Below are positions 30,199 through 41,375 of a stretch of DNA of 64,000 nt, piece after piece. Position 1 is the stretch's first letter, and the number at the start of each line of letters is the position of its first letter. Below the pieces are notes generated by a model. It worked only from the letters and a program-made list of their open reading frames with translations, was not told the DNA's origin and did not search any database. Location: assembly GCA_023150835.1 (NCBI GenBank), contig JAKLKB010000003.1:69764-133763 (forward strand), written 5' to 3'. A program made the position numbers and the translations under genes. This stretch comes from Myxococcota bacterium (GTDB taxonomy: Bacteria; Myxococcota_C; UBA6777).

Positions 30199-30747
30199 AT
30201 GAAGACACACACAACTCCTGCCTCTCTTCGCCTTCTTGCCACACTCGGCCTTTGTATGGCGTTGTTTTTCTTTGGCAAACGCTGGTATCAGCAAGCCGAG
30301 ACCTCATCGCTGCTTTGGCTACTCGGCCCCACCACGCAGGCGCTGTCTTGGTGGTCTGGAAAGACCTATCACTTCGTGGTGTCTGAAGGATTTTTACGAG
30401 AAGATGGCGCTTTGCTGATCCACAAAAACTGTTCCGGTTTTCAGTTTTTTTTACTTGCGCTGCTTGTCTCATGGTCTTCTCTGCTGTATCACGCTCGCTC
30501 TTTTCGTACAGGCTTTGTTCGCTTTTTGATCAGCAGTTGTGCAGCGTATCTGTTGACCTTGCTTGCCAATACCGCACGCATTCTTTCCGCTGAACACTTG
30601 GCTGCCATGCCATCGATCGCGTCACACATCGCCGCCGACACCCTTCATCAAAGTGTCGGGATCTTTGTGTACTTCAGCTTTTTGGTGCTCTTTTCTCTTT
30701 GCCTTTGGAGTGTACCCGATGAACGTCCCAACCCAACCCCATCTTGA
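30199..30747 (+). CDS. Exosortase/archaeosortase family protein (exosortase K-like)
   Basis: A 182-residue membrane protein with about five hydrophobic helices. It has the family's catalytic triad: Cys78 in HKNCSGFQFF, Arg127 in ANTARI, and His150 in DTLHQSVGIF. Exosortases are membrane cysteine transpeptidase-like enzymes that cleave C-terminal PEP-CTERM-type sorting signals. It is short compared with the large EpsH-type enzymes, as small dedicated exosortases are. The next gene overlaps its 3' end by 29 bases and encodes a protein with a matching sorting tail. ATG 30199 follows AAAGAGG at short spacing; upstream in-frame starts are possible. Confidence 0.85.
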   Translation: MKTHTTPASLRLLATLGLCMALFFFGKRWYQQAETSSLLWLLGPTTQALSWWSGKTYHFVVSEGFLREDGALLIHKNCSGFQFFLLALLVSWSSLLYHARSFRTGFVRFLISSCAAYLLTLLANTARILSAEHLAAMPSIASHIAADTLHQSVGIFVYFSFLVLFSLCLWSVPDERPNPTPS

Positions 30748-33700
30748 ACCCGCCGAACCATCTAGGCAACTGGATCTACAAAGCAGCAACCATCCCTACT
30801 GGCTATTGCTCAGCCTCACTCTCCCACAAGTCTTGTTGTGGTTGGCTTTTTTCTATCAATACATCTTGATCCAAAGTCTTTTATCTGACAAGAGTAAAGG
30901 CTATTGGGCAGATTATGGAATGCTGATCGGCGCAGGGATTGTTGGATCGATCTTTGTTGCATGCTTTTTCCGATACAAACGTCATCCTCTTCCTGCATGG
31001 CTCGCTCCGCTGCTTTTGTTCGGATATATCGGCCTTCTTTATTTTTCGATCAAAGATATGCCCCAGCTTTTACCGTTCAACATCCCGCAGTGGATGAGCC
31101 AACGAGAAGAATTATCACTTCTTCCTTTTGCTTTCACGATGCCTGTTCTTTTTCATGCTTTGTTGATGTTGATCGCTTACTTTACGCCGAACCAAGACGA
31201 GACGGCCTCTTTCCCTAATTTCTTTTATGCGCTGCTGATCCCGTTGATCTGGTACTTTTTTATCCAGATCCTTGTGCCGTATTTGCGAACAAAAACGTAC
31301 CTTTCGGAGCGCCTTTTTCTGATCTTTTTTATCTGCACAACGGTTTGTTTTTTCTTTTTTCTTTTGCGCGGTGTGCTGTTGGCCCTGCGAAAGAACCAAA
31401 AAACATCGCGTTATGCCCCATTCTGGCGTCTTTTGATCGCGTTGATCTTACCGCTTGCTGGGCTGGTGACCTACAACGCACGCAGCCTTTTTGGAATGCG
31501 CGGGATGCACACGCCTCAGATCGTTGGCGAACTCAGCCATCCGCTTTTCTATCTTTGCGCGATCCTCGCGGCAGGTGCGCTGCTTGCTCCATCTCCGCTG
31601 CTTCCACGCGCACGCTTGGCGCTGTTTTCGTTGCGTATGGTCGTGTATCCTTACACGCTGTTTTTCTTTGTGATCTTCTTGCCTTTCTTGCCTTTGTCGT
31701 TGCTTGCGATCTTGGTGATGGGTCTGGGTTTTCTGATGCTTGCTCCGACCCTGTTGATGATCTTGCACAGCAGGACACTCGCAGAAGAATGGAGAGCGCT
31801 TCGCCTGCATTACCGCACAACCCTGCTTGGTCTCGTTGCTGTCCTTTCCTTTTTTGCCGTCCCCTCTGGCATCCTCACTTATCTGTTCCAAGAACGCGCC
31901 ACACTCCACCGCGCACTCGCCTATCTTTATCAGCCCGATCACCTGCGCGTCCAAGCCCCCGATATCTATCCCGCTCTCCTGCGCAACAGCATCGACGCTC
32001 TGCGCCAACACCACCAGCGCAGACGTGGACGCCGTTTCGTGATCGCGGACGAAAAGCGTGTACCCTTTCTGACTTCTCTTTACAAAAGCATCGTGCTTGA
32101 CAATATGACTTTATCGCAAAACAAGATCAACGAACTCTCCCAAACCTTTTTGGGCAACACTTCTCCCTCCCAAACCACGACTGCTCGCCTCTTCCGCCCC
32201 AACAGAGCCTCTCCATCCGCTTCACTTCAGCCCATCCCCCCCCAAACCACCGCGATATCGCCCCATCAGTCGCGCTCTCCCCAAAGTACCGTCGCTTCGA
32301 CCTCTCCTCCGCGCTCTCCCCAAAGTACCGTCGCTTCGACCTCTCCTCCGCGCTCTCCCCAAAGTACCGTCGCTTCGACCTCTCAACCAAACGTGAAGAT
32401 TGCTCAACCATCCCCTGCGTCGGCCTCCAAGATGTTTACACCGTCTCCGTCTGTAAGCACCCAAACCGCCCTTTCCGCCACAAGGCCAACTTCTGCCACA
32501 GCCGCGACAGCCAGCCCCCACGCAGCCACGCAGCCCACCGTCGCCGCTGCTCAACCAGCATTTCGCATCACTACACCCAAGATCACACACTTACAAACCA
32601 GCACACACTACGATCCAACGATCCACGCTTACAAAAGCACGATCCTTCTTCGGATCACGAATTACGGGACTTGGCAGCAAGAATTCTCCACCTCTTTCCA
32701 GATCCCGCTCGGTGTTTGGGCGAGTGCCTATGCCCTTTGGATCGATGGGAAAAAAGTGGACGGTGCGCTCACCGAAAAAAAGGCGACGCTGTGGGTCTAT
32801 CAACAGATCGTTCGTGCGCGCCAAGATCCCGGCCTGTTGTACTACGAAGACGCGACCACACTACGCCTGCGGGTGTTTCCCGTCCTTGCTCGCGAGACAC
32901 GCCAAACGAGTTTCACGCTGTTGCACAAAGCGCCTTTTTCCTTTCAGATCGGCGCAAGCACACATCACCTCGACGATAGCCGTGTGCTCTCTCGGATGCA
33001 GCGCCCGATCGAACGGCTGTGGGGAGATCACCTGCTGTTCTTCCCGCACGAACAAAAAGCCAAACTCCCCACGTTGACGCGCAAGCCTTATCTGCACGCG
33101 ATCCTCGATTGTTCACAGGGACGAAAAAGCCATTATGCCCTCTACATCGAACAGATCCGCAAGCTGCACCAACGCTACAACCTCGATCCCACGCACACCC
33201 GCGTCACCTTTGCGAACTATCAAGCCCACACCAGCGCTTGGTCCGCTGACTTGCTCCAACACCTCGAAAGCTATCCTGCCCAAGGCGGACTTTTTCTTGT
33301 CCGCGTCCTCAAACGCATCTACCTCGAACACGCCACCCAAGCACGCGACTCTTTCCCTGTGGTCGTCGTACTCACCCCTCGCATCCAAGACGCGATCCTC
33401 AAACAAAGACTCCAAGGAGTCCCGTTTTTAAGTCCCGACGCTGCGTCTTTTTATAGCCTTAACCCGCAAGATCGGTTCACACGCCACAGCCTTTACGGTC
33501 CCTTACGCGATCAAGAGATCCAAAACACCGATCCTGCGACATTTCAGCCCTTTTCCTTGGGGACTGTGCGTACATGGCCAGACGCGCAGCATCCTCGCGT
33601 ATTCTTGCGCAACGATGGACAAGATAGCCTCGTATTGCGCGTCCCTTACGTGGCTCAGATGCCGCCCACCGCACTTCCCAACGATCCGTGGCAAGCGGGA

Positions 33701-34021
33701 CTTGCGATCTATGGGCGTTGGCTATTGCAACAGCTACGTTTGGGGGGACAAGAAAACTGGCTTGCGCAGATCCGTTGGAGTTGGTATGCCCGCATCCTCG
33801 GACCTCAGACCTCCTTTACTGTGCTGGAAAATCAAGCCCAATGGGAAGCCTTGCGCCGAAAACAACAGCAAGTCCTCGCAGGAAAAAGCTTTTTCGATCT
33901 GACCGAAGACGAAGGACCACGCCGTGCGGATGAACCGCCGCTCGGAGGGTTGGTGCTGTTGTTGGGGATGTTCTTCTTCTACTTTCTGCGCAAAACACGC
34001 AAAGCGCGGTCCCAGAATTAA
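30719..34021 (+). CDS. Multi-helix membrane protein with VIT domain and PEP-CTERM-like tail (probable exosortase substrate)
   Basis: A 1100-residue protein. About residues 25-390 form ten or so membrane helices. A Ser/Pro/Thr-rich linker with three 13-residue repeats (RSPQSTVASTSPP) spans ~515-560. About residues 625-745 form a vault/inter-alpha-trypsin (VIT) domain (IPLGVWASAYALWIDGKKVDG, in parts, and IVRARQDPGLLYYED), followed by a vWA-like region. The C-terminus has Glu1072-Pro-Pro, a hydrophobic helix and RKTRKAR, the PEP-CTERM layout, 29 residues from the end. This architecture matches the MSEP-CTERM/VIT proteins found beside dedicated exosortases. GGAG is 9 bases upstream of ATG 30719, inside the exosortase gene. 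Confidence 0.82.
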   Translation: MNVPTQPHLEPAEPSRQLDLQSSNHPYWLLLSLTLPQVLLWLAFFYQYILIQSLLSDKSKGYWADYGMLIGAGIVGSIFVACFFRYKRHPLPAWLAPLLLFGYIGLLYFSIKDMPQLLPFNIPQWMSQREELSLLPFAFTMPVLFHALLMLIAYFTPNQDETASFPNFFYALLIPLIWYFFIQILVPYLRTKTYLSERLFLIFFICTTVCFFFFLLRGVLLALRKNQKTSRYAPFWRLLIALILPLAGLVTYNARSLFGMRGMHTPQIVGELSHPLFYLCAILAAGALLAPSPLLPRARLALFSLRMVVYPYTLFFFVIFLPFLPLSLLAILVMGLGFLMLAPTLLMILHSRTLAEEWRALRLHYRTTLLGLVAVLSFFAVPSGILTYLFQERATLHRALAYLYQPDHLRVQAPDIYPALLRNSIDALRQHHQRRRGRRFVIADEKRVPFLTSLYKSIVLDNMTLSQNKINELSQTFLGNTSPSQTTTARLFRPNRASPSASLQPIPPQTTAISPHQSRSPQSTVASTSPPRSPQSTVASTSPPRSPQSTVASTSQPNVKIAQPSPASASKMFTPSPSVSTQTALSATRPTSATAATASPHAATQPTVAAAQPAFRITTPKITHLQTSTHYDPTIHAYKSTILLRITNYGTWQQEFSTSFQIPLGVWASAYALWIDGKKVDGALTEKKATLWVYQQIVRARQDPGLLYYEDATTLRLRVFPVLARETRQTSFTLLHKAPFSFQIGASTHHLDDSRVLSRMQRPIERLWGDHLLFFPHEQKAKLPTLTRKPYLHAILDCSQGRKSHYALYIEQIRKLHQRYNLDPTHTRVTFANYQAHTSAWSADLLQHLESYPAQGGLFLVRVLKRIYLEHATQARDSFPVVVVLTPRIQDAILKQRLQGVPFLSPDAASFYSLNPQDRFTRHSLYGPLRDQEIQNTDPATFQPFSLGTVRTWPDAQHPRVFLRNDGQDSLVLRVPYVAQMPPTALPNDPWQAGLAIYGRWLLQQLRLGGQENWLAQIRWSWYARILGPQTSFTVLENQAQWEALRRKQQQVLAGKSFFDLTEDEGPRRADEPPLGGLVLLLGMFFFYFLRKTRKARSQN
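32273..32385 (+). repeat. 39-bp in-frame tandem repeat
   Basis: Three near-identical 39-base units starting CGCTCTCCCCAAAGTACCG at 32273, 32312 and 32351. They encode a 13-residue Ser/Pro/Thr repeat in the linker between the membrane helices and the VIT domain. Confidence 0.9.
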
Positions 34022-34520
34022 GCTTGGGTCGGCCCCCCCCTCATTCCCCCCGGCCAACGGGGGGAAGTTGGAGCAGGCAAAGACGCACCCGCAGAAGTCG
34101 TACCTGCAAGAGAGACCACAGCGGCCAACGGGGGGAAGTTGGAGCAGGCAAAGACGCACCCGCAGAAGTCCAAGTGTTCGGGAACCGCCCGTGTATCGGG
34201 ACATCGAGCAGCGAACGGACACGCTCACACAACCACAGAAGTTTACGTAGGGGCGGTTCGCGAACCGCCCGTGTATCGGGACATCGAGCAGTGTTGTCTT
34301 TCCGACAGCACAGACGAAGTGTCCGAGTGTTCGGGGTGGGGGGCCAACCATCGCTTAACAAGGCGCGTATGGGGCGTCGCACAACGACGGGGTGAGGGTG
34401 AAACGAACATGGGAGGCCCTCTGGGTACTTGCCAGAACAAGCGAACCTGCGCAAGATCCATCCGTCCATAAGGCCCGCACCGATCGACCCGACGGATGCG
34501 CCCATCTTCACGGAGTTTGG
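34022..34520. repeat. Repeat-filled intergenic block with families C and A
   Basis: About 500 bases between the VIT-protein gene and the first AAA+ gene, with no credible gene. It holds a perfect 48-base direct repeat at 34052-34099 and 34123-34170 (beginning GGCCAACGGGGGGAAGTTGG), and a 30-base direct repeat at 34182-34211 and 34262-34291 (beginning GAACCGCCCGTGTATCGGG). There is also a GGCGGTTCGCGAACCGCC palindrome near 34250. The CCCCCC...GGGGGGAAGTTGG core is shared with 41045-41243. Confidence 0.85.
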
Positions 34521-41253: not shown

Positions 41254-41375
41254 GCCTATGGGGGCTGCCCCCTGTGGCTGCCCAAGAATAGGGCGATCCG
41301 CTGCCCAAGAATGGGGCGGTTCGCGAACCGCCCCTACATCATGCGATCATACATTACGCGGAGATCGTATCAGTC
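41254..41375. repeat. Dispersed repeat family A, copy 5 (compound)
   Basis: Contains GGGGGCTGCCCCCTGTGGCTGCCC, in parts, then two AAGAATRGGGCG strings and the palindrome GGGCGGTTCGCGAACCGCCC. It combines the GGCAGCC hairpin of family A with the GGTTCGCGAACC palindrome also found near 34250. Confidence 0.65.

What the first reader, a model, noticed from the sequence alone, without database searches (positions are those of the whole stretch)
30199..34021. Dedicated exosortase overlapping its probable VIT-domain substrate
The exosortase has the full Cys78/Arg127/His150 triad and is small. The next gene overlaps it by 29 bases and encodes a multi-helix membrane protein with a VIT domain and an EP + helix + RKTRKAR tail. 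From memory, MSEP-CTERM/VIT proteins occur beside exosortase K or N. Here the sorting tail reads DEPPLGG, a variant.
Basis: partly seen in the sequence, partly recalled or inferred. Interest (0 to 1): 0.65.

Follow-up and report, generated by a model that had tools for sequence, protein, structure and literature searches.

The report
Exosortase K with its VIT substrate
Two overlapping genes encode a known kind of membrane enzyme (exosortase K) and the one protein whose tail it probably cuts; in relatives that lack this enzyme, the same protein carries the tail used by a different exosortase, which points to the tail's short motif as the enzyme's recognition tag.

Summary
The 182-residue protein (30199-30747) is exosortase K (TIGR04287, 98.8 bits, cut-off 55). 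The 1,100-residue VIT protein (30719-34021) is an MSEP-CTERM protein (TIGR04286, 622 bits, cut-off 150). The 29-base overlap, Cys78/Arg127/His150 triad and tail are all present. The tail's ADEP lies where MSEP lies in relatives; a Bacteroidota member has MDEP. It is the only exosortase in the genome, and in 29% of that genome no second tail of this type was found, so 'one enzyme, one substrate' holds as far as tested.

Added here: 43 of 204 genomes of one Bacteroidota family carry this VIT protein. All 15 with XrtK have an M[ST]EP tail; all 28 without it have a P[ILV]D (PID-CTERM) tail, and 27 of these 28 hold another exosortase (XrtX wherever tested). Four genomes with XrtK and a second exosortase keep MSEP. 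On the tree this is one switch, not 28. It is good comparative evidence that the EP motif is the XrtK signal and that the protein was re-addressed to another enzyme. Cleavage itself is untested. Tail exchange among bacterial VIT proteins was reported in 2011, so the theme is not new.

The parts
30199..30747 (+). xrtK, exosortase K, 182 aa; Cys78 at 30430-30432, Arg127 at 30577-30579, His150 at 30646-30648
   Evidence: TIGR04287 98.8 bits (cut-off 55), TIGR04178 30.4 bits (cut-off 23); triad invariant in 21/21
30719..34021 (+). MSEP-CTERM-family VIT protein, 1,100 aa, predicted substrate
   Evidence: TIGR04286 622.5 bits (cut-off 150)
30719..30747 (+). 29-base overlap of the two genes (translational coupling likely)
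   Evidence: sequence; overlap of 4-41 bases, mostly 17, in most relatives; a few have a short gap
30797..31876 (+). N-terminal polytopic membrane part, about 10-11 helices (residues 27-386)
   Evidence: hydropathy
32271..32384 (+). in-frame 39-base minisatellite (2.9 copies, 100% identical) in the Ser/Pro/Thr-rich linker
   Evidence: the sister locus L013 has a different repeat unit at the same place
32633..32917 (+). VIT domain (residues 639-733)
   Evidence: PF08487 E 1.4e-9; family profile matches ITIH4 structure 9c4f at E 0.001
33080..33718 (+). conserved region after VIT (residues 788-1000), possibly a vWA-like domain without a proper metal site
   Evidence: conserved in 17 members; no Pfam match besides VIT; vWA assignment is inference
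33926..33937 (+). sorting motif Ala-Asp-Glu-Pro (residues 1070-1073), equivalent of MSEP
   Evidence: alignment A3; E-P invariant in 21 XrtK-type tails
33938..33988 (+). C-terminal hydrophobic helix (residues 1074-1090)
   Evidence: hydropathy
33989..34009 (+). basic cluster RKTRKAR (residues 1091-1097)
   Evidence: sequence

Best explanation
This is a dedicated one-enzyme/one-substrate exosortase system. XrtK, an inner-membrane Cys/Arg/His protease-transpeptidase, recognises the E-P motif + helix + basic tail at the end of the neighbouring VIT protein, cuts near E-P on the periplasmic side, and probably passes the new C-terminus to an envelope acceptor of unknown identity. Shown here: the two genes, their family membership, the invariant triad, the conserved motif, the single exosortase, and the tight match between tail type and XrtK presence among relatives. 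Inferred: cleavage, the cut site, transfer to an acceptor, and a periplasmic location of the VIT part. Because the substrate is already held in the inner membrane by about ten helices, the cut cannot serve simply to anchor or release it. The likely result is a protein fixed in the inner membrane at one end and joined to another envelope component at the other. When XrtK is absent (in one Bacteroidota clade), the same protein carries the PID tail, probably served by exosortase X.
For: Family models. Only exosortase in the genome; in 29% of the genome no other EP-type tail. Pair shared with the sister genome. XrtK lies immediately upstream of the VIT gene in all 21 genomes that have it. 21/21 tails with E-P when XrtK is present, 28/28 with P[ILV]D when XrtK is absent; 27 of 28 of the latter match PID_CTERM NF046080 at E<=0.01, while no XrtK-type tail does. 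A non-K exosortase occurs in 27 of the 28, XrtX in all five of these tested by model. Small PID-tailed proteins lie beside xrtX in 12 of 30 loci. The four XrtK genomes that also hold a second exosortase (XrtX by model in the three tested) keep MSEP on the VIT protein. Aconitase-xrtK-VIT and aconitase-VIT gene orders show the same locus with and without xrtK.
Against: No biochemical evidence for any XrtK was found in the paper library. The tail/enzyme match in the well-sampled family is one evolutionary switch, not many independent ones; grouping of the 15 XrtK rows was not rejected (p 0.067), so the direction rests on all outside lineages having XrtK. The cut could be purely proteolytic. 71% of the window's genome was not scanned for tails.
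Confidence: 0.82

Rival explanations
1. The tail is only a membrane anchor or stop-transfer helix; XrtK acts on something else and the two genes are coupled for another reason.
For: The protein is already polytopic, and no cleavage has been shown. In the PEP-CTERM survey only one three-member family of integral membrane proteins bore such tails (PMC1569441).
Against: A mere anchor would not need an invariant E-P, nor would the motif change to P[ILV]D exactly in the clade without XrtK while helix and basic end stay.
Confidence: 0.08
2. The switch of tail in the XrtK-less clade is neutral drift after loss of XrtK; XrtX does not process the VIT protein.
For: One event on the tree, and one of the 28 genomes (G883) shows no exosortase at all.
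Against: The new tails are not degenerate: they match a curated sorting domain (27/28), have invariant P and D, resemble the small PID proteins beside xrtX, and persist in a diverse clade.
Confidence: 0.15
3. XrtK simply cleaves the tail (no transfer), activating or releasing the C-terminal VIT part as a regulatory signal.
For: The N-terminal part already anchors the protein, so transfer is not needed for location.
Against: Related sorting enzymes appear to leave their substrates membrane-anchored, suggesting transpeptidase action (PMC11980579).
Confidence: 0.25

Closest known systems
Exosortase K / MSEP-CTERM system (NCBIfam TIGR04287 / TIGR04286)
   Same: Both proteins score well above cut-off; adjacent overlapping genes; polytopic VIT protein; E-P + helix + basic tail
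   Different: Motif reads ADEP instead of MSEP; host lies outside Bacteroidota, in a lineage annotated as Myxococcota; long repetitive linker before the VIT domain
Exosortase N and its VIT protein (TIGR04476 / TIGR04477)
   Same: A VIT protein said to be sorted by its own exosortase
   Different: Window protein reaches 47 bits against a cut-off of 250, over the VIT part only; the enzyme is XrtK
Exosortase X / PID-CTERM (NF046081 / NF046080)
   Same: In XrtK-less relatives the orthologous VIT protein carries this tail
   Different: No XrtX or PID tail on the window's protein; XrtX also has small PID-tailed proteins beside it
Gram-negative dedicated sortase TIGR03784 with its LPXTG vault-type target (PMC3237569)
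   Same: A VIT/vWA protein as sole target of a neighbouring enzyme
   Different: Unrelated enzyme family and a different motif

Membership tests
Exosortase K (TIGR04287) | Score above the curated cut-off | tested here: met
   98.8 bits, cut-off 55
Exosortase K (TIGR04287) | Cys/Arg/His triad of exosortases | tested here: met
   C78, R127, H150, invariant in 21/21
Exosortase K (TIGR04287) | Gene next to an MSEP-CTERM protein | tested here: met
   29-base overlap
Exosortase K (TIGR04287) | Protease/transpeptidase activity on the MSEP tail | not testable with these tools
   needs biochemistry
MSEP-CTERM protein (TIGR04286) | Score above the curated cut-off over the length of the model | tested here: met
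   622.5 bits, cut-off 150; sister protein likewise
MSEP-CTERM protein (TIGR04286) | C-terminal motif M-S-E-P, helix, basic end | tested here: met
   E-P, helix and basic end present; M-S replaced by A-D. MDEP and MTEP occur in other members
XrtN-sorted VIT protein (TIGR04477) | Score above the curated cut-off | tested here: not met
   47.4 bits, cut-off 250
PID-CTERM protein (NF046080) | P-I/L/V-D tail | tested here: not met
   No match for the window tail
One-substrate (dedicated) sorting system | Single exosortase and single tail in the genome | tested here: inconclusive
   Single exosortase in the whole assembly, 93% complete; single EP-type tail in 29% of the genome

The most novel reading that the evidence does not exclude
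The VIT protein must be processed by some exosortase, whichever is at hand: when its dedicated XrtK was lost, the same protein had its tail rewritten from MSEP to PID and became a client of exosortase X. This would be a natural re-addressing between two orthogonal exosortases, and would mean that processing of a multi-helix membrane protein serves a conserved function other than anchoring or release.
Probability: 0.65. Interest if true: 0.62.

Novelty: new member of a known kind. Interest (0 to 1): 0.5.

Why it matters
Exosortase specificity has been worked out mostly by comparing which signals and enzymes occur together, and no experiment on XrtK or XrtX was found in the library searched. This pair and its Bacteroidota relatives give a simple test of specificity: one protein, two tails, two enzymes, with some genomes holding both enzymes. 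It also sharpens the question of why a protein already fixed in the membrane by about ten helices needs its tail cut at all.

Tried and rejected
Structure prediction of the VIT-to-tail region and of XrtK with three sequences each gave unusable models (mean pLDDT 38 and 49), so no fold search was made. Sequence search of solved structures found nothing for XrtK and only the VIT part of ITIH4 for the family profile. A second, order-level search for independent tail switches found none (1 of 128 genomes). A set of 386 genomes centred on the window's genome (its phylum plus a sample of the domain) gave the system only in the window's genus. Searches of plasmids for the PID-type VIT protein and XrtX found nothing. 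No paper on XrtK, MSEP-CTERM, XrtX or PID-CTERM was found in the library; the 2012 archaeosortase/exosortase paper is not held. The idea that DEPPLGG is a new signal class was dropped after alignment.

Full report
What is there. xrtK spans 30199-30747 (182 aa) and the VIT gene 30719-34021 (1,100 aa from ATG 30719), overlapping by 29 bases. NCBIfam names both: exosortase K (TIGR04287, 98.8 bits, cut-off 55) and MSEP-CTERM protein (TIGR04286, 622.5 bits, cut-off 150). Pfam finds the VIT domain. Hydropathy gives about ten to eleven helices in the first 390 residues and one at the end, followed by RKTRKAR.

Host. The window's assembly has 7.56 Mb in 239 contigs and is 93% complete. Only four relatives of its phylum are held, and only the one in the same genus has the pair. 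That sister contig is titled 'Myxococcota bacterium isolate KLAP109'. Between the two genomes both genes are under purifying selection (dN/dS about 0.10 and 0.14), except the linker (0.47) and, on only 36 codons, the tail (0.48).

One enzyme, one substrate? XrtK is the only exosortase/archaeosortase match in the assembly. I fetched 2.2 Mb (29% of the genome, window included) and listed ORFs ending in a single helix plus basic residues: 16, of which the window's VIT protein is the only one with a Cys-free E-P motif. Of ten others tested, most match MYXO-CTERM models at or near cut-off, the usual tag of Myxococcota (PMC11980579). A dedicated system is therefore likely but not proven for the whole genome.

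Relatives. MSEP-CTERM proteins are rare and patchy: 5 of 395 Bacteroidota genomes, and none outside the window's genus in a 386-genome set made up of the window's phylum and a sample of the domain. The window pair may have come from Bacteroidota by transfer; this is inference from the distribution and the tree, with long branches. In relatives the two genes overlap, most often by 17 bases; a few have a short gap. The window's ADEP aligns with MSEP; another member has MDEP, two have MTEP.

Natural experiment. XrtK is present in 15, always beside it, and absent from 28. All 15 tails read M[ST]EP; all 28 others read P[ILV]D. Counting the other lineages, 21 of 21 XrtK genomes have E-P. 27 of the 28 other tails match PID_CTERM NF046080 at E<=0.01, and none of the 21 XrtK-type tails does. 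Of the 28 XrtK-less genomes 27 hold another exosortase. Eight exosortases of this family (five from XrtK-less genomes, three from XrtK genomes) were tested by model, and all are exosortase X, NF046081. Small proteins with nearly the same P[IL]DGGASLLLA tail lie beside xrtX in 12 of 30 loci. Four genomes hold XrtK plus a second exosortase (XrtX by model in the three tested) and keep MSEP on the VIT protein.

How strong is it? A tree of the VIT proteins without their tails puts all PID-type rows in one clade (98), nested among XrtK-type rows; one change explains everything. So this is a single event kept in many descendants, not 28 events. Holding the 15 XrtK rows of the family together is not rejected (p 0.067), but all outside lineages have XrtK, so loss of XrtK is the simpler direction. 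In several genomes of each state the aconitase gene lies directly upstream, with xrtK between it and the VIT gene in one state and absent in the other, which fits loss in place.

Mechanism. Exosortases are regarded as membrane Cys proteases that probably act as transpeptidases (PMC11980579). By analogy XrtK cuts at E-P. Since the substrate is already multi-helical, the cut neither anchors nor frees it; joining its C-terminus to an envelope component would make a two-ended tether, and simple cleavage would expose or activate the VIT part. I favour transfer, but cannot test it.

What is new and what is not. The pair is a member of a curated family. The 2011 rhombosortase paper already showed that bacterial vault-type (VIT/vWA) proteins carry GlyGly, PEP or LPXTG tails in different species, some beside dedicated enzymes (PMC3237569). 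The addition here is an orthologous protein, at a locus shared in several genomes, whose tail differs between two exosortase-type signals in step with the enzyme present. NCBI's TIGR04286 model also names the PID-tailed proteins 'MSEP-CTERM', which is misleading.

Noticed in passing
32271-32384: A perfect 39-base tandem repeat (2.9 copies) lies in frame in the linker before the VIT domain; the sister locus L013 has a different repeat unit there, so the linker is a fast-changing minisatellite.
   Followed up: partly
34251-34270 and 41314-41333: A 19-base near-palindrome GGCGGTTCGCGAACCGCCC occurs at two places in the window with none expected by chance; the one after the VIT gene lies among other repeated intergenic units (34050-34350).
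   Followed up: partly
L183, L216, L112, L185, L173, L120, L192, L195, L152, L142: Many large proteins of this genome end in GCxC-type + helix + RRR tails close to MYXO-CTERM, so a separate sorting system seems to be in use.
   Followed up: partly
L043, L057 and the other XrtK-less loci: NCBIfam TIGR04286 scores these proteins far above cut-off although their tail is PID-CTERM, so automatic naming as MSEP-CTERM proteins would be wrong about the signal.
   Followed up: yes
L069 (genome G883): A PID-tailed VIT protein in a genome where no exosortase was found; possibly an incomplete assembly.
   Followed up: no
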